A DNA stretch of 64,000 nucleotides from Cetobacterium sp. NK01 (GTDB lineage: Bacteria > Fusobacteriota > Fusobacteriia > Fusobacteriales > Fusobacteriaceae): the NCBI RefSeq assembly GCF_024506395.1, contig NZ_JANIBO010000004.1, positions 1 through 64,000 on the forward strand, read 5' to 3'. The position numbers and the translations under genes were made by a program. The notes under the pieces were generated by a model. The model was not told the origin of the DNA and did not search any database. It saw only the letters and a program-made list of their open reading frames with translations. Below are positions 8,228 through 53,355 of this stretch, one piece after another; position 1 is the first letter of the stretch; each line of letters opens with the position of its first letter.

Positions 8228-8271
8228 GTAAAAATTCATTATAAGTATACGTATAAAAATTATTTACAATT

Positions 8272-8443
8272 TTAGGATAGCACAACATTAGAAATACTAA
8301 TGACAGTCATATAGATATTTTCTATATGCCCAATAAAAATTTTTGACCTAAATTTTTATTTCGGCAAACTTCCCTTTCAGTTAATTTCAAAGCCTTGTCT
8401 AACTCCATTAACTTACTATTGTTATTTGCAACCTCTACCTTTA
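8272..8443 (-). ncRNA. Lysine riboswitch (L box)
   Basis: The minus-strand leader carries the lysine aptamer signature in order: AGGTAGAGGTTGC, then ATAGTAA, then CTGAAAGGGAAG with GTTTGCCGAA, then TTGGGCATATAG with a closing hairpin and ACTGTCA, and finally GCTATCCT, which closes P1 with AGGTAG. The ~170-nt length is normal. A terminator follows. It controls the AGCS symporter and lysA1. Confidence 0.9.
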
Positions 8444-8460
8444 TTTTTTTTGTTAAAAAT

Positions 8461-10226: not shown

Positions 10227-10307
10227 AAACCTATAAAAATCTATAAAATTTTATAAGTTTAATTCCTTATTCATAGAATCCTATTTCAATAAATTAATTT
10301 ATCTACT

Positions 10308-10652
10308 TTAGTTTGATATAACTCTCCAAAGACTTAAATTCCAGCATAACGAACGATACATATTATAGTTTTTTTCTTTAGGAAACTCTATTCTATTAAA
10401 TTCAGACTTATATTTCATATAAGTTATAAATTTATAGAAGTTTTGTTCTGCTATAGCCTTTGAAAGATATCTATTTTTCATCATATTTTTAACATTTAAA
10501 TTTTCCATTATAATTTTAGATAGTTTGGTTTTCACTATCTTATTAGTAATTTGATGAAGATTATTGTTTCTAATATTAGAAATTTTTCTATGAACGAGCC
10601 TTATTTTTTCTCTAGCTTCACGATATTTCGGCTCTTTTGGTAACGGTTATTC
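10308..10652 (-). pseudogene. TnpB central fragment
   Basis: The minus strand encodes a continuous TnpB-like segment beginning at PLPKEPKYREAREKI and continuing through RLVHRKISN, HQITNKIVKTKLSKIIMENLNVKNMM and KSEFNRIEF. This includes the RuvC-II glutamate (IIMENLNVKNM), but the RuvC-I region upstream and the zinc finger downstream are missing. An in-frame stop lies just before it. It should not be annotated as a gene. Confidence 0.75.
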
Positions 10653-38231: not shown

Positions 38232-39542
38232 GTGAAATATTTAGGAACAATGACTAATGTAGATGGAGTTTTAGAAATAGGTGGAGTTTCTGTAAAAGAA
38301 TTGCAGGAAAAGTATGGCACTCCTCTTTATGTTTATGATTTAGAGTTTATGGAGAAAAATATAAAAGATTTAAAGGAATCTTTTGTCAGTGAAAAATTTA
38401 AAACAACTATAGTTTATGCTTCAAAAGCTTATTTATCTAAAGGAATGGCTCAAATTATTGAAAAGAATGGACTTGATATTGATGCTGTTTCAGGTGGAGA
38501 GCTGTACACTATTTTAACTTCGAGTTTTCCTACAAAAAGAGTTCATATGCACGGTAATAATAAATCTTTAGAAGAGATTGAGATGTGTGTAAAAAACGGG
38601 ATTGGGAGTATTATTTTAGATAATAGATTTGAAGCTGAAAAAGTTGCACTTGTGTGTAGAAAATTTAATAAAAAAATGAATGTTATGTTAAGATTAAATA
38701 TTGGAATAGATGCTCATACTCATGAATATATAAAAACATCAAAGCACTCATCTAAGTTTGGGGAGTCTATTTTTGATAAAGATATTGTTAAAATAGTTAA
38801 GGATATTGTAGATAGACCTGAGTTAAATTTTTTAGGATTTCATAGTCATATTGGATCTCAGATTTTTGATGAGTTAGCTTTTTGCGAAGGTGTTGAAACT
38901 ATGGTTGAGTTCACAAAGAAAATTTCAGAAAAACTTAATATATACATTCCAGATATAAATATTGGAGGAGGGTTTGGAGTTAGATATACCCAAGAGGATA
39001 CTGATGTTAATCTGAAAAAAATCATGAAAAAAATCATCAGATGTTTAGAAAATAGTTTAGTAAAAGAAGGGATAGATATAAAAAATGTAACTATAGAACC
39101 TGGGCGATCTATCGTAGCTCAAGCTGGAAGTACTCTTTATATGGTTGGTGGTGAAAAAGAAACATATGGTGGTGAAAAATATATTTTTATTGATGGAGGA
39201 ATGACGGATAATATAAGACCAGCTCTTTATCAAGCTAAATATGAGAGTATCGTTGCAAATAAACTTAATGAAACAGAGAAAGAGATTGTAACTATTGCTG
39301 GTAAATGTTGTGAATCGGGAGATATCATAGCTAAAAATGTAAGGTTAGGAAAATGTAGGGAAAATGATTTAATTCTTGTTAGCTGTACAGGGGCATATGG
39401 ACATTCTATGAGTAGTAATTACAATAAAGCTTTAAAACCAGCAGTGGTATTTGTAAAAGATGGAAAAAGTTATCTTGTTTCTAAAAGAGAAAGTTATGAT
39501 GATTTAACAAAAAATGATATACTATTGGAAAATATATTTTAA
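38232..39542 (+). CDS. lysA: Diaminopimelate decarboxylase, copy 2
   Basis: PLP-dependent decarboxylase of 436 aa, nearly colinear with copy 1 at 5316-6623 and of high identity by eye. PLP lysine in YASKAYLSK, HSHIGSQIF, INIGGGFGVRY, EPGRSIVAQAGSTLY and GKCCESGD are all present. The start is a GTG behind AGGAGG. It lies in a D-amino acid/N-acyl amino acid operon instead of a lysine-riboswitch operon, so the two copies are under different control. Substrate could be meso-diaminopimelate released from wall peptides. Confidence 0.9.
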   Translation: MKYLGTMTNVDGVLEIGGVSVKELQEKYGTPLYVYDLEFMEKNIKDLKESFVSEKFKTTIVYASKAYLSKGMAQIIEKNGLDIDAVSGGELYTILTSSFPTKRVHMHGNNKSLEEIEMCVKNGIGSIILDNRFEAEKVALVCRKFNKKMNVMLRLNIGIDAHTHEYIKTSKHSSKFGESIFDKDIVKIVKDIVDRPELNFLGFHSHIGSQIFDELAFCEGVETMVEFTKKISEKLNIYIPDINIGGGFGVRYTQEDTDVNLKKIMKKIIRCLENSLVKEGIDIKNVTIEPGRSIVAQAGSTLYMVGGEKETYGGEKYIFIDGGMTDNIRPALYQAKYESIVANKLNETEKEIVTIAGKCCESGDIIAKNVRLGKCRENDLILVSCTGAYGHSMSSNYNKALKPAVVFVKDGKSYLVSKRESYDDLTKNDILLENIF

Positions 39543-39555
39543 GGAGATGCAATTT

Positions 39556-40725
39556 ATGAATATAGAACTTTTAAAAAAACACAGCGAAAATATAAAAAAT
39601 TGGTTAGTAAAGGTGAGGAGAGATTTTCATGAGCACCCAGAATTAGGAACTCAAGAGTTTAGAACTCACGATAAAATTTGTGAATATTTAGATGAGATGA
39701 ATATTCCTCATAGAACTTCATTTGACACAGGAGTTATAGCTGAGATTGAGGGAGAAAATAAAAATATAACGATAGCATTAAGAGGGGATATAGATGCACT
39801 TCCTATACAGGATATAAAAAGTGTAGATTATGCTTCAAAAAATAGTGGAATTTGCCATGCCTGTGGACATGATGTACACACAACTGTAGTTTTAGGAGTG
39901 GCAAAATATTTTTATGAAACAAAGGAGAAGCCACCTGTAAATATAAGATTATTTTTTCAACCTGCTGAAGAAACTGTTGGAGGGGCAAAACCTATGATTG
40001 AAGATGGAGCTCTTGATGGAGTTAATGCTGTTTATGGATTACATGTAGATGAAACTATAGATGTTGGAAAAATTGGAATAAAGTATGGAGCTATGAATGC
40101 TTCTTCAGATACCTTAAAAATAAAGATAAAGGGAGAAAGTTGTCATGGTGCTTATCCAAGTAGAGGCGTGGATGCACTTTTAATAGCATCTCATGTTATT
40201 ATTGCTCTACAGAGTATTGTGAGTAGAAATTTAGATGCTAGAGAATCTGGTGTAATAACAATTGGAACAATAAATGGTGGAACTGCTGGGAATATTATAT
40301 CAAATGAGATTGAGCTTAGAGGAACTTTGAGAACTTTAGATCCAGATGTTAGAGCTAGAATGAAAAAAAGAATTGAAGAGATTGTAACAACTCTACCTTT
40401 AGCTTTTGGTGGAAAGGGTGAGATTAATATAGAGCCTGGTTATACAGCTTTAATAAACCATGATAAATCTGTAGATATTATTAAAAAAAGTGCTACTGAA
40501 CTTTTTGGAGAGAATAGTATCTATGAAAAAAAGTTAGCCAATATGGGAGTGGAAGACTTTGCGTATTTCATTGAAAACACTGAGGGAGCATTTTTTACTT
40601 TAGGAGTTAGAAATACCGAGAAAAATATAAAAACTCAGGCTCATAATGGAAACTTTGATATTGATGAGGAAGCAATTGTTAATGGAGTAATGATGCAAAT
40701 ATTAAATGTATATAACTCAATTTAA
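39556..40725 (+). CDS. M20 family amidohydrolase 1
   Basis: A metal-dependent N-acyl amino acid/peptide amidohydrolase, 389 aa, cytoplasmic. It starts as these enzymes do (VRRDFHEHPELGTQEFRTHDKI), with metal ligands in ALRGDIDALP, ICHACGHDVHTTV and PAEETVGGAKPM, a lid domain (SCHGAYPSRGVDAL) and the final MGVEDFAYFIE. Members cleave N-acyl, gamma-glutamyl or hippurate-type bonds. The frame opens within lysA2, but AAGGAGATGCAATTT sets ATG 39556. It is in an operon between lysA2 and the beta-lactamase-like gene. Confidence 0.88.
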   Translation: MNIELLKKHSENIKNWLVKVRRDFHEHPELGTQEFRTHDKICEYLDEMNIPHRTSFDTGVIAEIEGENKNITIALRGDIDALPIQDIKSVDYASKNSGICHACGHDVHTTVVLGVAKYFYETKEKPPVNIRLFFQPAEETVGGAKPMIEDGALDGVNAVYGLHVDETIDVGKIGIKYGAMNASSDTLKIKIKGESCHGAYPSRGVDALLIASHVIIALQSIVSRNLDARESGVITIGTINGGTAGNIISNEIELRGTLRTLDPDVRARMKKRIEEIVTTLPLAFGGKGEINIEPGYTALINHDKSVDIIKKSATELFGENSIYEKKLANMGVEDFAYFIENTEGAFFTLGVRNTEKNIKTQAHNGNFDIDEEAIVNGVMMQILNVYNSI

Positions 40726-40735
40726 GGAGGGAATC

Positions 40736-41494
40736 ATGAAAAGATTTGATCAACTAAAATCTAATTTACAAAATATAATTAATGAATTTTCAGGAAAAGT
40801 AGGCATTATAGTTAAGGTTGATGGAGAAGAGATATTTTCTAAAAATGAAAGTAAAATTTTTCAATCAGCTAGTTTGATAAAGCTTTTTATTTTAGAGGCA
40901 CTCCTAGAAAAAATATCTCAAGGTGAATTATCTTATAGTGATAAAAAAAGTGTGGATTCAATGGAAAAAGTTCCAGGTTTCGGAGTTTTAAAAGTTTTAG
41001 ACGACAATTTAAGTGTGACAATAAAAGATTTAGCGACACTTATGATAACTTTAAGTGATAATACAGCTACGAACATGTTGATAGATATTTTAGGAATAAA
41101 TTACATTCAAAGTTTTATTGAGAAAAAAAGTTACTATGAGACTCAACTTCAAAGAAAAATGTATGACTCTGAAGCTAGAGAGAGGGGATTAGACAATTTT
41201 ACAAGTGCTAGAGATACCCTAAAAGTTTTAGAAAATCTATATTGTGATGAGACAGCACTTTTTATTCTAAAAAATCAACTGTGTAACTCTAAAATTCCTC
41301 TATATTTTTTTAGAAAAGTAGAGATAGCCCATAAAACTGGTGATTTAACAAATATAGAGCATGATGCAGGAAGAATATTTTTCAAAAATAGCTTTGTAGA
41401 TTTGATTATTTTAGCAGAGGGAGAAAATAAAGAAGCTGTTCTCTTAAATAATAGATTGGGTGAATGTATATATGAAAACTTTAAAAACTGTTGA
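40736..41494 (+). CDS. Class A beta-lactamase-fold serine hydrolase, no signal peptide
   Basis: A 252-aa serine hydrolase. All class A motifs are present: SxxK as S46-LIK49 (QSASLIKLF), SDN at 107-109 (LSDNTATNM), an ERGLD omega-loop element near 149-153 (usual ExxLN) and K200-TG (HKTGDL). It has no signal peptide, so it should be cytosolic, where penicillin is not met. Together with M20 and D-aminoacylase neighbours it more likely hydrolyses a small D-amino acid amide, ester or peptide. AAGGAGGG precedes ATG 40736; the stop overlaps the next gene. Confidence 0.8.
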   Translation: MKRFDQLKSNLQNIINEFSGKVGIIVKVDGEEIFSKNESKIFQSASLIKLFILEALLEKISQGELSYSDKKSVDSMEKVPGFGVLKVLDDNLSVTIKDLATLMITLSDNTATNMLIDILGINYIQSFIEKKSYYETQLQRKMYDSEARERGLDNFTSARDTLKVLENLYCDETALFILKNQLCNSKIPLYFFRKVEIAHKTGDLTNIEHDAGRIFFKNSFVDLIILAEGENKEAVLLNNRLGECIYENFKNC

Positions 41495-43112
41495 TGAAAA
41501 AAAATATGATTTAGTTATAGAAAATGGAACTGTTGTCTTTGGTAGTCTCAAAGAAAAAGAACTTCTAAATATAGGAATAATGGGAGATAAAATTGAGGCT
41601 ATCTCTAAAGATAAACTGATTGGAAAGAAAATTATTGATGCTAGGAATCTTTATGTGACTCCAGGATTTATAGATATTCATAGTCACTCAGATATTTCTG
41701 GATTTATATATGAAAGTTGCCCAAGTAAAGTTTATCAAGGAGTGACATCAGAAATTAATGGAAATTGTGGAATAGGAATCTTTCCGTGGTCAGATGAGAA
41801 TAGAGAAAATCTTAAAAAGTATATTCAAACTCATTCAGATATAAATTATTATCCACTAGATTTAAGTAAAACTAAATCTTTTTTAGATTTAAAAAAATTT
41901 TTAGAAAAGGGAAAACTTGTAACTAATCAAGGATTTCTTGTTGGAGCTGGGTGTATTCGAATAGCTATAATGGGGTTTAAGTCAAGCGAGGCCAATGAAA
42001 GTGAAATTGAAAAGATGAAGAGACTTTTGGAAAAACAATTTGAGGAGGGTGCCCTTGGAATATCTTTTGGATTGATATATCAACCAGGAAATTTTATGAG
42101 CCAAAGGGAGATTCTAGAACTTTTAAAAGTTGTAAAAAAGTATGATAGAGTTGCATCTTTTCATATGAGAGATGAGGTTAATGAAATTGAAAAATCCATA
42201 GAAGAGGTTATTTATTACGGTAGAGAAACTAGAGCAAAGGTCAATGTTTCCCACTTAAAAGTTATGAACAAAAAAAATTGGGGAAAGTCTAGAAAAATTA
42301 TAGAGATGTTAGAGAAAGCTTCTAAATCTGGAGTATCAATATCTTTTGATCAATATCCTTATGAAGCTACTTGTACAAATCTTTTTGTTCTTATACCTCA
42401 AAATATTTTCGATGGAGATATAGAAACTTTTATAAAGGAGATTCCTAATTTCTCTGATAAAGTGATGTCTTTAATAAGAGAAAAGATTGAAAAAAGAGGG
42501 GGAAGTAATAATATTTTGGTATCTAATAGTTATTTAAAAGATACTTATTTCAATGGAAAAACAATCTCTGAGATTTCAAAACATCTAAATTTAAGTGAAG
42601 AAAAAACTGTTTTATATATACTTGAAAAATCTAAAGGAAAGGCTCAAGCTATATATTTCTCTATGGATTTAAAGGATGTAAAGGAGTTTTTTAAAAGTGA
42701 TTTGGGAGTTATTGCTAGTGATGGGAACTCTTTACCAATGGAGGATAAATTTAGATTGGGAAATCCTCATCCGAGAAATTTTGGGACATTTCCAAAATAT
42801 ATATGGATGATTAAAGATGAGGTTTCAATAGAAAAAATAATAAATAGAATTACCGAGAGACCAGCTAAACTCTTTAGATTAGAGGGACGTGGAGAGATTA
42901 AAAATGGAAACTTTGCAGATATTACCATTTTTGATTTGGATAAAATTAAAGATAGTTCTACTTTTGAAAACTCTTTTCAATTTCCAGTGGGGATAGAATA
43001 TGTTATTATAAATGGAAAAATAGTTTTAAAAGATAAAAAAATTTGCTCAGAAAATTTTGGATATATTTTAGAAAAAAAAAGTCTAAGTTTGATATTAAAA
43101 GAAATTAGATAA
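41472..43112 (+). CDS. N-acyl-D-amino acid deacylase family protein 1
   Basis: A zinc amidohydrolase of the D-aminoacylase family, about 546 aa. The metal-site motifs are IDIHSHSD, the bridging cysteine in NGNCGIG, SFHMRDE, VSHLKVM and ASDGNSLP. The N-terminal (DLVIENGTVVFG) and C-terminal (NGNFADITIFD) parts form the beta-sandwich of composite amidohydrolases. It would release free D-amino acids from N-acyl or formyl forms. Reading starts either at GTG 41460 or ATG 41472, both inside the preceding gene, so translation is coupled. Last gene of the operon. Confidence 0.87.
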   Translation: MKTLKTVDEKKYDLVIENGTVVFGSLKEKELLNIGIMGDKIEAISKDKLIGKKIIDARNLYVTPGFIDIHSHSDISGFIYESCPSKVYQGVTSEINGNCGIGIFPWSDENRENLKKYIQTHSDINYYPLDLSKTKSFLDLKKFLEKGKLVTNQGFLVGAGCIRIAIMGFKSSEANESEIEKMKRLLEKQFEEGALGISFGLIYQPGNFMSQREILELLKVVKKYDRVASFHMRDEVNEIEKSIEEVIYYGRETRAKVNVSHLKVMNKKNWGKSRKIIEMLEKASKSGVSISFDQYPYEATCTNLFVLIPQNIFDGDIETFIKEIPNFSDKVMSLIREKIEKRGGSNNILVSNSYLKDTYFNGKTISEISKHLNLSEEKTVLYILEKSKGKAQAIYFSMDLKDVKEFFKSDLGVIASDGNSLPMEDKFRLGNPHPRNFGTFPKYIWMIKDEVSIEKIINRITERPAKLFRLEGRGEIKNGNFADITIFDLDKIKDSSTFENSFQFPVGIEYVIINGKIVLKDKKICSENFGYILEKKSLSLILKEIR

Positions 43113-48200: not shown

Positions 48201-48627
48201 TTTTTTTAAAGGGTTGAAATTAAGAGAGTCAGTTTGTTTCTACAATTTAAAAACCTATAACATAAATATATGAAAAAATACTGTTTTAACTTATTTATAT
48301 TATTCTTTATTTTATATCTATATCTCGTATTATATAAATTTAATTCTCGGTATTTTTATATTAATTTTAGATATATGGATTTATCTTAATAAAAACAATA
48401 AAGTAGATCTCGTATTATTGACATAATACGAGATCTACTAAAATTAAATAAAAATTTATCTCTATAAAAACTCATCTATATTTTAAATTTAATATTTATA
48501 GCATTTATATGATTAACTTCATTTTAAACACATAATTACAGGCTATAAAAAATAAAAATTATTTAAAAATAATTTTATGCTACAATATCACAACTTGTAA
48601 TATTCATTCTATTAATCTAATTGAATT
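48201..48627. other. Noncoding gap containing dif-like site 2
   Basis: AT-rich, with no ORF on either strand. It holds a half-site ATCTCGTATTA at 48322-48332, the full dif-like site at 48407-48434 and a run of A/T. I see no promoter with good spacing for the downstream gene, which is read from the other side. Confidence 0.5.
48407..48434. other. dif-like recombination site 2
   Basis: The same 11-bp arms as site 1 (ATCTCGTATTA and its inverse) around spacer TTGACA. The inverted repeat extends five more bases on each side (AGTAG/CTACT), making 16-bp arms. It lies 13.5 kb from site 1. Confidence 0.55.
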
Positions 48628-49689
48628 TTATTTTAAAACTCTTTCAATTCTTTCATTTATTAAAGGTAAAATTTCACATATATGCATCCCAGTATTATTT
48701 CTAATTAAATTCACATTTGGATATAAAATAACCTCATCTCCTTCACAAATAGAATTATCACCAGCTATAAAAGTATTATCCATTGTCACAGATAATATTT
48801 TATAGGGCTTTTTATTTATTATACACATACTATTTTCATTACACTTTAAAAAACCATCTCCATAGCCAATCTTTATTTTTACAATATTTTTATAATCTTC
48901 ACTACTCAAGTTATCTTTTGAAGTATATGCTAAGTACTTAGAATCTTTAATATCTCTTATTCCAGCTACTTTTCCCTTTAATTGAAAAACTTGTTTCAGT
49001 CCTTCATGAAAAAATCCTTCTTCTTGCAATCCATAAATGAATATTCCACTTCTCATATGAGTCATAAAATCTTGAGCTCCATAAAATAAAATTCCAACGC
49101 TATTTTGAATATGTATCATTTGAAATTTTTCTTTTCCTAAAAAAAATACAACTTCATTAAATTTATCTATCAGTTCCTTTCCTTCATTGAAATCAGTAGC
49201 ATAAAGATGAGAGTAAATTCCATTAAATTCTAGATTTTTATCTACTATATAAGATTTTAATTTTAAAATATCTAGTAGTTCTATTCCATTTCTTCCAAAT
49301 CCAAAATCTATTTTTAGCTGAATTTGTTTTGAAGAAATACCATTATTTACTAAATTTTTAAGCTCTCTAAAGCTGTTAGCAGTTACAATTATAGAATCAT
49401 AATCTTTTATATACGAAAAAGAACTTTCGTCTATAGTTTCAAAAACTAAAACTTTACACTTCTTTAGCTCCTCATTTTTTAAAATTTTTAGAGCTTCATT
49501 CAATCGAGCAACACTAAACTCTTTATAACCATTTTTATATAAAGCTTTAGCAATAAGCTCTATTCCATGCCCATAAGCATTTGCCTTAATAACAGGAAGG
49601 ACACTTTTTTTATATTTTTCTTTAAGATAATTAATATTATTTACAAGATTTTTTTCTGAAATTTCCATATAAAATGACTTTATTTCCAT
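48628..49689 (-). CDS. alr: Alanine racemase family protein
   Basis: PLP-dependent amino acid racemase, 353 aa. The PLP lysine is K35 in LPVIKANAYGHG. The barrel continues with KIDFGFGRNGIE, IYSHLYATDF, QNSVGILF and MRSGIFIYGL. The C-terminal domain has LAYTSKDN, whose tyrosine matches the catalytic one, and KIGYGDGF where most enzymes have GYADG. Divergence in several active-site positions (FGFGRNG for GMxRxG) leaves open a substrate other than alanine. It starts two bases after the binding-protein stop, in the same operon, so amino acid uptake and racemisation are coupled. Confidence 0.82.
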   Translation of the reverse strand: MEIKSFYMEISEKNLVNNINYLKEKYKKSVLPVIKANAYGHGIELIAKALYKNGYKEFSVARLNEALKILKNEELKKCKVLVFETIDESSFSYIKDYDSIIVTANSFRELKNLVNNGISSKQIQLKIDFGFGRNGIELLDILKLKSYIVDKNLEFNGIYSHLYATDFNEGKELIDKFNEVVFFLGKEKFQMIHIQNSVGILFYGAQDFMTHMRSGIFIYGLQEEGFFHEGLKQVFQLKGKVAGIRDIKDSKYLAYTSKDNLSSEDYKNIVKIKIGYGDGFLKCNENSMCIINKKPYKILSVTMDNTFIAGDNSICEGDEVILYPNVNLIRNNTGMHICEILPLINERIERVLK

Positions 49690-49691
49690 AA

Positions 49692-50429
49692 TTATATACC
49701 ATACTTTTCTTTTAAACTTTGAATAGTTCCATCATCTAACATCTTTTTTAATTCTGTATCAATTTTATTTTTTAGCTCTTCATCACTTTTATTAAAAGCC
49801 ATTGCTTTGCTTTCTCCAGAAGCAACTCCGATGCTTTCTATCTCGGGATTGTTCTCTATATACTTTTGAGCAACAGTTTCATCTAATAACATAGCATCTA
49901 TTTTATTAGCTTTTAATGCTAATAAAGCTGATGTGTGTCCAGTAAAAGGAATCACTTGTGCACCTGGGACTTGTCTTGCAATTCCCTCTTCAGTTGTACC
50001 TAATTCTACACCAAATTTTTTATTTTGCAGTTCTTTTGGATTTTTTAAGTTATTATTTTTTAAAACTATATAACAAATATTCGGAGCTATATATGGTGTT
50101 GAAAAGTTAATAAAGTTTTTTCTTTCTTCAGTTACAGTCATTCCAGCTATAATCATATCCACCTTTTTTGTCTGTAAAGCTGATATAAGTCCATCAAAAT
50201 TCATATTAGACCATTTATAATTAAATCCTACTCTTTTAGAAAGCTCCTCAATAATGTCAGCATCAAACCCAACAACCTTATTATTTTCTAAATATTCATA
50301 AGGTGGATATTCAGCGTTTGTTCCAATCACATAAGTCTTTTCATTAACCTCTGTTTTTTTCTCATCTTTTGTACACCCCAAAAATACTACAAATAATAAA
50401 ACTACCATTGATATAATAATCTTTTTCAT
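49692..50429 (-). CDS. Amino acid ABC substrate-binding lipoprotein, orphan
   Basis: A family 3 extracytoplasmic solute-binding protein, 245 aa. The lipobox is VVFLGC (lipidated cysteine at about residue 19). The mature part has NAEYPPYEYLENNKVVGFDADIIEELSKRVG, SALQTKKVDMIIAGMTVTEERK and FGVELGTTEEGIARQVPGAQVIPF, the hallmarks of polar amino acid receptors. No permease or ATPase gene is near, so it must use a partner elsewhere, or act as a sensor. It is the first gene of the operon with alr, behind a leader with an attenuator. Confidence 0.87.
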   Translation of the reverse strand: MKKIIISMVVLLFVVFLGCTKDEKKTEVNEKTYVIGTNAEYPPYEYLENNKVVGFDADIIEELSKRVGFNYKWSNMNFDGLISALQTKKVDMIIAGMTVTEERKNFINFSTPYIAPNICYIVLKNNNLKNPKELQNKKFGVELGTTEEGIARQVPGAQVIPFTGHTSALLALKANKIDAMLLDETVAQKYIENNPEIESIGVASGESKAMAFNKSDEELKNKIDTELKKMLDDGTIQSLKEKYGI

Positions 50430-50454
50430 CTCTTCCCTCCATAAAAAATTTTAT

Positions 50455-50492
50455 AAAAAAAATACCTGCCTTAAAAGACAGGTATTAATCAC
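50455..50492 (-). terminator. Attenuator terminator in the SBP-alr leader
   Basis: On the minus strand AATACCTGTC pairs with G(G)CAGGTATT around TTTTAAG, followed by eight Ts, about 25 bases before the binding-protein start and ~190 nt after the promoter. Confidence 0.75.
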
Positions 50493-50544
50493 AAAAAATA
50501 TAACTAAAAACTATTTAATCAATAAAAAATTAATTAAATTTTAA

Positions 50545-50628
50545 TTATAAAATAAAGCAATTGAGCCTACTATCTCTAAGGATTACAAATTTATTAAGTT
50601 GTTTTGTATTCCTTAAATTCCTTAGCAT
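50545..50628 (-). CDS. Candidate 27-aa leader peptide of the SBP-alr operon
   Basis: ATG 50628 follows AAAGGAGGAAGAG, one of the best ribosome binding sites in the window. The product (MLRNLRNTKQLNKFVILRD then SRLNCFIL) has six leucines and four arginines among 27 residues and two early AGG codons. It lies between a consensus promoter and a terminator, the layout of translational attenuation. It might also be a small independent protein. Confidence 0.5.
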   Translation of the reverse strand: MLRNLRNTKQLNKFVILRDSRLNCFIL

Positions 50629-50656
50629 TCTCTTCCTCCTTTTATAATTTTGTCAG

Positions 50657-50685
50657 ATTATAACATCTAAAGTTTTATAAGTCAA
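50657..50685 (-). promoter_or_regulatory. Promoter of the SBP-alr operon
   Basis: TTGACT, a 17-bp spacer and TATAAT on the minus strand; a near-perfect promoter. Confidence 0.75.
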
Positions 50686-50728
50686 TAAAATATGTTATGC
50701 AAATAATATATTACAATAACATATTTTA
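50686..50728. promoter_or_regulatory. 13-bp inverted repeat upstream of the SBP-alr promoter
   Basis: TAAAATATGTTAT (50686-50698) and its exact inverse ATAACATATTTTA (50716-50728) around a 17-bp centre, abutting the -35 box. It is a likely regulator binding site. Confidence 0.55.
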
Positions 50729-50756
50729 TATATTGTACAAAGATTTTTTTTATCAA

Positions 50757-51970
50757 AATGCCCTGAGAAAACCTCTTCTTCTATTAGGGGGAGGATAAAT
50801 CTAGGCAATCTTTTTAGTTTTTTAGATTAAAATATTTAGAAATTATGGTACAATACAATAATAATAAAATTTAAAAAATGGAGGTGAAAAACTATGAAGA
50901 CGTATAACTTAGCTTTTAAATATAGGGTATATCCTAATGAAGTTCAAGCCAATATAATTAATGCAACTTTTGGTTGTACTAGACTTGTATATAATAGATT
51001 CTTAGCTCAGAGAAAAGAATTGTATGAGACAGAAAAAAAATCTGTAACTTACAATACTCAAGCTAAAGAGCTCCCACTACTTAAACTTGAATTACCATTC
51101 TTGAAAGAGGTTGATTCAATAGCGTTACAACAAGCGCTTAAAAATTTAGAAACTGCGTATAAGAATTTCTTTCAAAACCGTACAGCATTTCCTAAATTTA
51201 AATCTAAAAAATCAACTAGAAAATCGTATAATACAGTATCTACAAGTAATAATATCAGAAAGGATATTAAAGAAGTTCCAAGCGATAACAATATTGTTGG
51301 GCTTGATTTTTCTATGTCAGAATTATTTGTTAGCTCTGAAAACCAAAGAGCTGACTATCCTAGATTTTTTAGAAAGTTAGAAACTAAATTAGCTAAAGCT
51401 CAAAGAGAGCTATCTCGTAAAGTTAAATTCTCAAGTAATTGGAATAAGACTAAATTAAAAGTTGCTAAAATCCACCAAACAATCAAAAACAGTAGAAAAG
51501 ATTTTTTACACAAATTATCAAATGAACTTGTGACTAAATATAACGCGATAATACTTGAAGACCTTAATATGAAAGGTATGAGTGGAGCATTAAATTTTGG
51601 TAAATCTGTCGCTGATAATGGTTGGAGAATGTTTACGACTATGCTTCAATACAAATCAATATTTTTAGGTAAACAAGTAATTAAAATTGACAAGTGGTTT
51701 CCATCGTCAAAAACTTGTTCATTTTGTGGTACTATAAAAGCTGAGTTGGCACTATATTCAAGAGTTTACAAATGTGATGAATATAACTCAGAGATAGATA
51801 AAGACCTAAACGCAAGTATAAATATTCGTGAGGTTGGTAGAGAGCTACTAGCCTATTAAAATATATATCACAGGGTAGGAACTACCCGTAGAGCGTGATT
51901 AATATATCTGACATGAGTCAGATACTTTCCACGAAGCCCCGCCCTCTATTAGGGCGGTGGTAGTTCACAT
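50757..51970 (+). mobile_element. Degenerate IS200/IS605-family element with TnpB only
   Basis: The unit contains a left-end-like hairpin (ACCTCTTCTTC, TATTAGG, GGGAGG near 50775-50800), a tnpB gene, and a right end with the hairpin CGCCCTCTATTAGGGCG and GTAGTTCAC. The right end would hold the omega RNA scaffold in active elements. No TnpA is present and the tnpB is damaged. Confidence 0.75.
50894..51859 (+). pseudogene. tnpB: TnpB-like RNA-guided nuclease gene with internal deletion
   Basis: A 321-aa TnpB-like frame. The start NLAFKYRVYPNEVQANIINATFGCTRLVYNRFL and the RuvC triad are present: D in NIVGLDFSMSE, E in AIILEDLNMKGM and D in IDKDLNASINI. Between residues ~125 and 132 the frame jumps from STSNNIRK to DIKEVPSDN, so the usual ~45-residue stretch before RuvC-I appears to be missing. 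The zinc finger reads CSFCG then CDEY, with the fourth cysteine lost. Family proteins normally have 350-400 residues. The nuclease is probably inactive. It starts behind GGAGGTG. Confidence 0.8.
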
Positions 51971-52005: not shown

Positions 52006-53355
52006 ATGAAAATAGCAATAAATAATGGACACTTAATTGATCCTAAAAATAATATATCTGAAAAATTAAATATCAGTATTGAAAATGGTAAAATAGTTGA
52101 GCTTTCTAAAAATATTTTAACTGGAGATAAAGTAATTGATGCAAACAATTTATATGTAACTCCTGGATTTATTGACATGCATATGCATGAAGATAAAATA
52201 CTAGATGGAAAGATTAAAATAAATATTTTTGAAAAACTTTTAAAAATGGGGGTAACTTCTGCTATAGGAGGAAATTGTGGAATTGGTATTGAAAATATTA
52301 GTGAATATTTAAATTTAGTTGATCTTGGATTTCCTATAAACTACGGAACACTTTTACCTCATGAAATTTTAAGAAAATACATTGATATTCATGATAGATA
52401 TGCGAATCTAGAGAATAAAAATATAGAAAAAATGTATCACTTTGGAAAAAATCTTATAAAAGAAAATGGTCTTTTAGGGATAAGCTTTGGTATTGAATAT
52501 ATTCCAGGAATAGATTTTAATGAATTAATAACATTAGCTAGACTTGGAAAAAATAGAATTGTTTCTGCTCACTTGAGAGAGGATGGAGAAAATGTTTTAA
52601 AGTCTTTAAATGAATTTTTAGAAATTGGAAAATTTTCAGATACCCATTTACAAATTTCTCACATAGGAAGTATGGCTGGATATGGACAAATGGATAAATT
52701 TTTAACTGAAATTGAAAATAAAAAAGAACATGATATCAAAATAATGTATGATTGTTATCCATATAAGGCTTTTAGCACACTAATAGGTTCGGCTGTTTTT
52801 GATAATAATTATATTGAAAATCATAATTTTGTTTATGAACAACTACAAATTGCCAGCGGTCCATTAAAAGGTAATTTATGCACAAAAAAGATTTTTGAAC
52901 AATTAAGAAAAGCTTCTCCTGAGACTCTTGTTATTGGACATATGATGATTGAAAAAGATATTGATACTGCTATTTTAAATAAAAATACTGTTATTGTCAG
53001 TGATGGAATTTTAACTGAATCAGGTGAAGGACACCCTAGAGCAGCTGGGACTTTTCCAAAGTTTCTAAAAGAGTATGTAAAAGATAAAAAATTACTATCT
53101 ATAGAAGAAGCTATTGAAAAAATAACATTTTCTCCAGCTAAAATACTTGGAATAAATAAAGGTTCTTTAGAAATCGGAGCTGACGCCGATATTACAATTT
53201 TTTCTTTAGACGAAATTGAAGATCAAGCAACTTTTGAAAATACAACTTTACCTCCAAAAGGGATAAAATATGTTATTATCAATGGTAAACTTGCTTTAAT
53301 TGATAATGATGTTGTAAATTTTAACTCTGGAAAATCTATACGAAAATTTTTATAA
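52006..53355 (+). CDS. N-acyl-D-amino acid deacylase family protein 2
   Basis: Composite amidohydrolase of 449 aa, shorter than copy 1. Metal-site motifs are IDMHMHED, the cysteine in GGNCGIG, SAHLRED, ISHIGSM and VSDGILTE. The N- and C-terminal strands (IAINNGHLIDPKNN; GSLEIGADADITIFSLDEIE) form the beta-sandwich. Substrate may be N-acyl-D-glutamate/aspartate or a related compound. The start follows AAAGGAG. It begins 36 bases after the IS right end, so its native promoter may have been displaced. Confidence 0.85.
   Translation: MKIAINNGHLIDPKNNISEKLNISIENGKIVELSKNILTGDKVIDANNLYVTPGFIDMHMHEDKILDGKIKINIFEKLLKMGVTSAIGGNCGIGIENISEYLNLVDLGFPINYGTLLPHEILRKYIDIHDRYANLENKNIEKMYHFGKNLIKENGLLGISFGIEYIPGIDFNELITLARLGKNRIVSAHLREDGENVLKSLNEFLEIGKFSDTHLQISHIGSMAGYGQMDKFLTEIENKKEHDIKIMYDCYPYKAFSTLIGSAVFDNNYIENHNFVYEQLQIASGPLKGNLCTKKIFEQLRKASPETLVIGHMMIEKDIDTAILNKNTVIVSDGILTESGEGHPRAAGTFPKFLKEYVKDKKLLSIEEAIEKITFSPAKILGINKGSLEIGADADITIFSLDEIEDQATFENTTLPPKGIKYVIINGKLALIDNDVVNFNSGKSIRKFL

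What the first reader, a model, noticed from the sequence alone, without database searches (positions are those of the whole stretch)
50430..50728. Leader peptide and attenuator control of an SBP-alr operon
A near-perfect promoter, a 13-bp inverted repeat next to it, a 27-codon ORF with a very strong ribosome binding site, and a T8 terminator line up before an orphan amino acid receptor and a racemase. The peptide is rich in Leu and Arg with AGG codons near its start, which suggests ribosome-mediated attenuation. Coupling a receptor without a permease to alanine racemase is itself unusual.
Basis: partly seen in the sequence, partly recalled or inferred. Interest (0 to 1): 0.52.

Follow-up and report, generated by a model that had tools for sequence, protein, structure and literature searches.

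The report
Arginine-codon leader attenuator before SBP-alr
A short arginine-rich leader peptide and a transcription terminator sit in front of an amino-acid receptor and a racemase gene in a fish-gut-type bacterium, and the same kind of leader recurs in front of arginine genes across this bacterial order, which suggests that these bacteria sense arginine by ribosome stalling.

Summary
On the minus strand lie a strong promoter, a 14-bp inverted repeat, a 27-codon ORF with a strong SD, and an 11-bp T8 terminator just before SBP-alr. In six genomes of two Fusobacteriaceae genera the same SBP has a homologous leader ORF, Arg3 and Arg6 are invariant, and the terminator covaries. A model of these leaders finds related ones before argC, SBP-argG, amino-acid permeases and M20 hydrolases. 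As an independent test, 21 of 30 argC loci carry an SD-led ORF with at least two Arg in codons 2-10 followed by a terminator; hisG loci 0 of 30, shuffles 0. Under a like rule his loci give His-run leaders, so the codon matches the pathway. No ArgR passes the cut-off in 96 genomes of the order (controls 8 of 14). Best reading: ribosome-mediated attenuation sensing arginine. Arg-tRNA shortage stalls the ribosome on codons 3-8, frees the 3' half of the ORF hairpin, and this captures the terminator's 5' arm. The complementarity is significant over 20 non-redundant leaders, not for the window alone, and shows no covariation. Leucine is not the signal. Nothing is shown experimentally. No published description was found in the open-licence papers searched.

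The parts
50685..50729 (-). 14-bp inverted repeat (arms 50716-50729 and 50685-50698) touching the -35 side of the promoter; possible operator
   Evidence: weakly conserved
50657..50685 (-). promoter TTGACT-17-TATAAT with extended -10
   Evidence: conserved in G008, G006 and as TTGACT..TATAAT in G024, G025, G027
50630..50642 (-). Shine-Dalgarno region of the leader ORF (AAAGGAGGAAGAG)
50545..50628 (-). leader ORF, 27 codons; Arg codons 3 (AGG), 6 (AGG), 18 (AGA), 21 (AGG)
50575..50617 (-). P1: ORF hairpin, 5' strand 50617-50603 (spans Arg codon 6) with 3' strand 50589-50575
   Evidence: 88.1% of cells paired, 3 pairs with double changes
50570..50577 (-). element 2 core AGAGAUAG, proposed antiterminator strand
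50514..50538 (-). P2: AU hairpin between ORF and terminator, also predicted in relatives
50474..50481 (-). element 3 CUGUCUUU: terminator 5' arm that element 2 can pair with
50455..50486 (-). intrinsic terminator (11-bp stem, 4-nt loop, T run)
   Evidence: 100% of cells paired, 3 pairs with double changes
49692..50429 (-). amino-acid substrate-binding lipoprotein (SBP_bac_3; best NCBIfam hit TIGR01096 Lys/Arg/Orn, below cut-off)
48628..49689 (-). alanine-racemase-like PLP enzyme (TIGR00492 160.4 bits, cut-off 168)
48402..48439 (-). terminator-like hairpin after alr, 17-bp stem: likely operon end

Best explanation
A ribosome-mediated transcription attenuator that senses arginine. The transcript starts at the promoter at 50685-50657 and is translated from the leader ATG. 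SHOWN (by sequence and comparison): the ORF, its early Arg codons, the ORF hairpin P1 and the terminator exist and are conserved; leaders of the same anatomy recur before arginine genes. INFERRED: with enough Arg-tRNA the ribosome passes the early Arg codons, P1 reforms or stays formed, the terminator forms and SBP-alr is not transcribed. When Arg-tRNA is short the ribosome stalls on codons 3-6, covers the 5' strand of P1 and frees its 3' strand (AGAGAUAG). That strand pairs with CUGUCUUU of the terminator's 5' arm before the 3' arm is made, so polymerase reads through into SBP-alr. If the leader is not translated at all, P1 forms and transcription stops. The operon would thus be a low-arginine response, in one regulon with SBP-argG and a permease-ATPase-SBP operon of the same genome.
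For: Leader conserved in 6 genomes of 2 genera, always before this SBP. Arg3 and Arg6 invariant in 6 of 6. Terminator covaries, 100% of cells paired; P1 partly covaries. Profile searches reached leaders before argC, permease and SBP genes (5 of the 11 weak hits read). Independent test on argC: 21 of 30 loci positive, hisG 0 of 30, 0 in 60x30 shuffles. Without any Arg criterion Arg is 69 of 198 residues at codons 2-10, against 2.7% of codons in 13 window CDS. In the own genome a sister leader MTMRRVLRT precedes SBP-argG and MLFRIDRNRV precedes a permease-ATPase-SBP operon. His loci give His-run leaders by the criterion-free rule. Element 2 x terminator 5' arm: better than swapped pairs p 6.7e-6 and shuffles p 9.5e-6 over 20 non-redundant leaders. 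Terminator 5' arm paired upstream 0.68 when stalled, 0.44 naked, 0.37 with the ribosome at stop; above shuffles p 1.3e-5. No ArgR over cut-off in 96 genomes.
Against: For the window alone element 2 x 5' arm is not significant (z -1.4 against shuffles, +0.2 against swaps). The antiterminator shows no covariation; 2 of its 8 pairs are broken in 3 and 5 of the 6 sequences, and the G008 stalled fold does not show it. Coding signal between orthologues is modest (window-G006: 6 synonymous, 4 non-synonymous codon changes, P 0.02; G024-G027: 1 synonymous, 4 non-synonymous). A small gene with its own terminator would have the same anatomy. No expression data. The 21 argC leaders were selected for Arg, so only the tally is free of that bias.
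Confidence: 0.78

Rival explanations
1. Leucine-sensing attenuation, as the first reader left open: the Leu codons 2, 5, 11, 17 are the cue.
For: Leu2 is invariant in the six orthologues and several Leu codons change synonymously.
Against: Leu5 is Ser in G008; argC leaders such as MRRYRRIRSKYN lack Leu in the cluster; Leu is 12 and Arg 69 of 198 residues there; downstream genes are argC, argG and arginine-type transport.
Confidence: 0.04
2. Nascent-peptide sensing: free arginine, ornithine or a ribosome-targeting drug acts on the ribosome carrying the Arg-x-x-Arg nascent chain, rather than uncharged tRNA at Arg codons.
For: Peptide residues beyond Arg are also similar between genera (F/Y, I/F, R/K, D/E). 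Arg-Leu-Arg leader peptides are known for drug-induced stalling (PMC8632094, passages).
Against: The Arg clusters are so close to the start that only 2-8 residues would be in the tunnel; the peptide otherwise varies widely over the family; the targets are arginine genes, where induction at low arginine is expected.
Confidence: 0.1
3. The short ORF is an independent small gene (or sRNA) with its own terminator; SBP-alr is expressed by constant partial readthrough.
For: ORF, SD and terminator form a complete unit; the antiterminator lacks covariation.
Against: Such units stand just upstream of amino-acid genes, with codon identity following the pathway; peptide bodies are not conserved over the family as a functional protein would be.
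Confidence: 0.06
4. A metabolite riboswitch or T-box in the leader controls the terminator.
For: Strong, conserved fold (z -5.9).
Against: No Rfam hit at gathering score; the best at E up to 5 is a chance-level PreQ1 outside the leader; the conserved part is coding, with SD and start codon.
Confidence: 0.02

Closest known systems
his / trp / leu leader-peptide attenuators (ribosome-mediated transcription attenuation; general knowledge, recalled)
   Same: Promoter, SD-led short ORF with cognate codons, ORF hairpin, intrinsic terminator before the first gene; proposed 1:2, 2:3, 3:4 switch.
   Different: Cue is arginine; the Arg cluster is at codons 3-8, right after initiation, whereas the his-type leaders found here have the His run at the 3' end of the ORF. 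Most early Arg codons are AGG, rare in the window's genes.
Salmonella speF orf34 leader (PMC6386406, abstract read)
   Same: Short ORF whose Arg codons make the ribosome pause at low arginine and change the downstream RNA fold.
   Different: orf34 acts on Rho-dependent termination, speF translation and RNase G decay, and has two consecutive Arg codons in a conserved domain; here an intrinsic terminator and an early Arg cluster.
uORFC-8-2 cysS motif and other uORF candidates (PMC8632094, passages read)
   Same: Comparative prediction of codon-specific attenuators in a bacterial lineage.
   Different: Cys or Phe codons, Rhodobacterales and Acholeplasma; the word Fusobacterium does not occur in that paper.
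ArgR/AhrC arginine repressor regulons (recalled)
   Same: Control of arg biosynthesis and arginine transport by arginine supply.
   Different: DNA-binding repressor; not found over cut-off in the order.

Membership tests
ribosome-mediated transcription attenuator | SD-led short ORF between promoter and first gene, conserved | tested here: met
ribosome-mediated transcription attenuator | intrinsic terminator between leader ORF and gene, conserved by covariation | tested here: met
ribosome-mediated transcription attenuator | enrichment of one cognate amino acid matching the pathway of the genes | tested here: met
   Arg before argC and SBP-argG; His before his loci. For SBP-alr itself the pathway is only inferred
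ribosome-mediated transcription attenuator | mutually exclusive antiterminator | tested here: inconclusive
   significant over 20 leaders, not for the window alone, no covariation
ribosome-mediated transcription attenuator | readthrough responds to charging of the cognate tRNA | not testable with these tools
   needs expression data
T-box or known riboswitch | match to an Rfam covariance model | tested here: not met
ArgR regulon | ArgR protein in the genome | tested here: not met
   0 of 96 over cut-off, 1 sub-threshold; controls 8 of 14
macrolide-type arrest leader | resistance gene downstream | tested here: not met
   SBP, alr, argC, argG, permeases

The most novel reading that the evidence does not exclude
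Fusobacteriales have no ArgR and instead run an order-wide arginine regulon (argC operon, SBP-argG, arginine-type ABC transporters, M20 hydrolases, a dimethylargininase-like gene, SBP-alr) through Arg-specific leader-peptide attenuators of an early-stall design built on the rare AGG codon; the window's SBP-alr operon is a member, which puts an amino-acid racemase under arginine control.
Probability: 0.65. Interest if true: 0.7.

Novelty: new variant of a known kind. Interest (0 to 1): 0.6.

Why it matters
It would give a whole order, including oral and gut fusobacteria, a defined arginine-sensing mechanism where the usual repressor is missing, and a ready set of leaders for testing how ribosome stalling right after initiation can control termination. 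It also predicts functions: genes behind such leaders, the orphan receptor and the alr-like racemase among them, likely serve arginine or a related basic amino acid.

Tried and rejected
Leucine as cue, riboswitch or T-box, and the inverted repeat as a conserved operator were considered and rejected or left weak (8, 12; 99). A first alignment used the wrong strand of one locus and was replaced. An antiterminator with the terminator loop and 3' arm (T3) was tested beside the 5'-arm one and was mostly no better than shuffles, so it was dropped. The leader peptide as a single query found only the three Cetobacterium copies among 61 genomes; all other hits had E 0.38 or worse. Of the 11 weak-hit loci read, six were not leaders (L125, L126, L127, L128, L106, L109). 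Of 19 further loci scanned, 12 gave nothing by the rule, and L156 has no gene close behind. Of 13 loci, seven gave nothing, and the L223 'terminator' overlaps the ORF. Of 30 SBP loci, 11 had both an SD-led short ORF and a terminator by that scan; L053 and L054 had their terminator found only by the later rule. Among argC loci 9 of 30 failed the rule: G018 has a candidate with one early Arg; of the other eight I read two more closely (G089, G086), and by eye both have a MIKFIRRIRERN ORF with a weaker SD, which is not counted. L107 was dropped from the structure statistics because no terminator was found by the rule, and L055 did not enter the set of 40. The single 2-Arg candidate among his loci (G070) is unexplained. 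hisG is often not the first gene of its operon, so 0 of 30 is a soft control; one search looked 1500 nt upstream.

Full report
WHAT IS THERE. The window lies in contig C4 (118 kb) of a Cetobacterium-like genome. The nearest named matches are NZ_CP092521.1, a 181,744-bp plasmid of C. somerae that equals G006:C3 in length and coordinates, and NZ_CAMQXC010000157.1, an uncultured Cetobacterium that equals G008:C157 in length and match. Read on the minus strand: inverted repeat 50729-50685, promoter 50685-50657, SD, 27-codon ORF 50628-50545, AU hairpin 50538-50514, terminator 50486-50461 with its T run, then SBP 50429-49692 and alr 49689-48628. The repeat has 14-bp arms and is rare in shuffles (1 of 300), but relatives keep only short arms, so I do not build on it.

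THE SITE HAS BEEN HIT BY AN INSERTION. In G008 and G006 the SBP is divergent from an N-acyl-D-amino-acid-deacylase-like gene with about 360 nt between them. In the window an IS605-type element with tnpB only (about 50754-51968) sits between the repeat and that gene. The leader and its promoter are intact.

CONSERVATION. The leader ORF is found in G008 (MLRNSRNTKQLNKFVILRDSRLNCFIL) and G006 (MLRNLRTINQLNKFVILRDSRLNYFIL). Between window and G006 there are 6 synonymous and 4 non-synonymous codon changes and no frame change; random change of equal size gives at least 6 synonymous codons in 2% of trials. In three genomes of another genus of the family (G024, G025, G027) the SBP-alr pair is kept at 61-63% identity, and upstream stands MLRRLRNRLKINNNYMFLKESLWFE or a near copy, with the promoter TTGACT..TATAAT, SD and a T8 terminator. 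A profile of the six peptides finds these six among 96 genomes of the order at E below 1e-11; the next hit is at 0.015. In G008 the contig ends inside the SBP, so alr cannot be seen there. The terminator is kept with double changes (100% of cells paired; 3 pairs with double changes), and P1 in part (88%).

THE LEADER BELONGS TO A WIDER FAMILY. A covariance model of the ORF region, together with weak hits of the peptide profile, led to 11 loci that I read; 5 have promoter, SD, Arg-rich short ORF, terminator and an amino-acid gene: argC (G033), SBP (G034, G035), ABC permease (G017, G022). Scanning 30 SBP loci found a second type, MTMRRVLRT and variants, in seven; argG follows the SBP in six of these seven, the seventh locus holding only 376 nt beyond the SBP. 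Further loci add permeases, M20 hydrolases and SBPs (7 of 19 loci by the rule, 6 of 13). One SBP locus with such a leader (L053) continues into a dimethylargininase-like gene (70-residue fragment searched, below the family cut-off). A named case is the F. animalis plasmid pSB029A: MLRRRMIRKTKN upstream of a permease, ATPase and 'basic amino acid' SBP operon. The window's own genome has three such leaders: SBP-alr, SBP-argG at C1 about 376 kb, and permease-ATPase-SBP at C1 about 1.138 Mb. The last could supply the permease that the window SBP lacks (inference).

INDEPENDENT TEST. If the leaders sense arginine, the arginine biosynthesis operon should have them. argC over the cut-off occurs in 32 of 96 genomes. 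Of the 30 loci fetched, 21 have an SD-led ATG ORF with at least two Arg in codons 2-10 and a terminator behind it; hisG loci 0 of 30; shuffled argC upstreams 0 in 60 rounds of 30. Dropping the Arg criterion and asking for a strong SD, 22 of 30 have exactly one candidate, and Arg is 69 of 198 residues at codons 2-10, the next being Ile with 30. The same criterion-free rule over 1500 nt upstream of hisG gives 10 candidates, 9 with at least three His, such as MLRKTFIAFHHHHHC. So the order uses leader attenuation in general, and the codon follows the pathway. Arg is 2.7% of codons in 13 window CDS, with AGG 6 of 159 Arg codons; in codons 2-10 of the 40 leaders Arg is 118 of 360, with AGG 82 of 118. 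ArgR (PF01316) passes its cut-off in 0 of 96 genomes and in 8 of 14 control genomes.

MECHANISM. In naked leaders the Arg-coding 5' part of the ORF pairs with nt about 40-85 (P1); over 20 non-redundant leaders this is stronger than in swapped pairs (p 1e-4) and shuffles (p 7e-6). The 3' side of P1 is complementary to the terminator's 5' arm (p 6.7e-6 against swaps, 9.5e-6 against shuffles). Folding transcripts that end at the terminator loop, the 5' arm is paired upstream with mean probability 0.68 if a ribosome covers the RNA up to the last early Arg, 0.44 without a ribosome, and 0.37 with the ribosome at the stop codon; the stall effect exceeds shuffled controls (p 1.3e-5; window 0.25 against -0.17 with sd 0.17). 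In the window the pair is AGAGAUAG (50577-50570) with CUGUCUUU (50481-50474), in the other genus AAAGA with UCUUU. Against it: for the window alone the complementarity is not significant, there is no covariation, and G008 does not show it in its best fold. Stalling itself, and its link to Arg-tRNA, are inferred.

FUNCTION OF THE OPERON. The SBP is nearest to Lys/Arg/Orn, Gln and cystine binders and below the NCBIfam cut-offs; its closest solved relatives include ArtJ and reconstructed ancestors. The racemase is just below the alr cut-off (160.4 against 168), and its nearest solved relatives are alanine and serine racemases. That it acts on arginine or ornithine is a guess from the regulation. 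In the C. somerae plasmid alr is interrupted by a Tn3-family element.

LITERATURE. Full-text searches of open-licence PMC papers for leader peptides, attenuation, arginine and Fusobacteria found no description of this regulon (search listings only). In an F. nucleatum transcriptome paper (PMC11005410) a term search found no occurrence of leader, attenuat-, arginine or riboswitch. The nearest precedent is Salmonella speF orf34 (PMC6386406, abstract). Closed-access papers were not searched.

VERDICT. It is a new, arginine-specific variant of a known mechanism, and its spread in an order without detectable ArgR is the more interesting part.

Noticed in passing
window 50754-51968 (+): IS200/IS605-type element carrying only tnpB (321 aa, matched in two stretches, perhaps internally deleted), inserted after TTAT between the SBP promoter and the divergent deacylase gene; related IS ends occur at C4 about 81.9 kb and 104.7 kb.
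   Followed up: partly
L098 / NZ_CP092521.1 171153-176241: In the C. somerae plasmid the alr gene is split by a Tn3-family transposon with its recombinase gene.
   Followed up: partly
L192, L197, L199-L201, L203, L207 and others: His-run leader peptides (e.g. MLNKMIITFHHHHHS) with terminators about 1.2-1.4 kb upstream of hisG: 9 of 10 candidates over 30 loci.
   Followed up: partly
L229 368-2294 (-), own genome C1 about 376 kb: SBP-argG operon behind an Arg-rich leader, MTMRRVLRT type.
   Followed up: yes
window 8270-8445 (-): Lysine riboswitch, 108.5 bits.
   Followed up: no
window 10263-10332 (-): RAGATH-18 RNA, 62.4 bits.
   Followed up: no
window 39514-43112 (+) and 52006-53355 (+): Cluster of M20 hydrolase, beta-lactamase-like serine hydrolase and two D-aminoacylase-like amidohydrolases; with lysA and murI nearby in the C. 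somerae plasmid it looks like D-amino-acid or peptidoglycan-fragment use.
   Followed up: no
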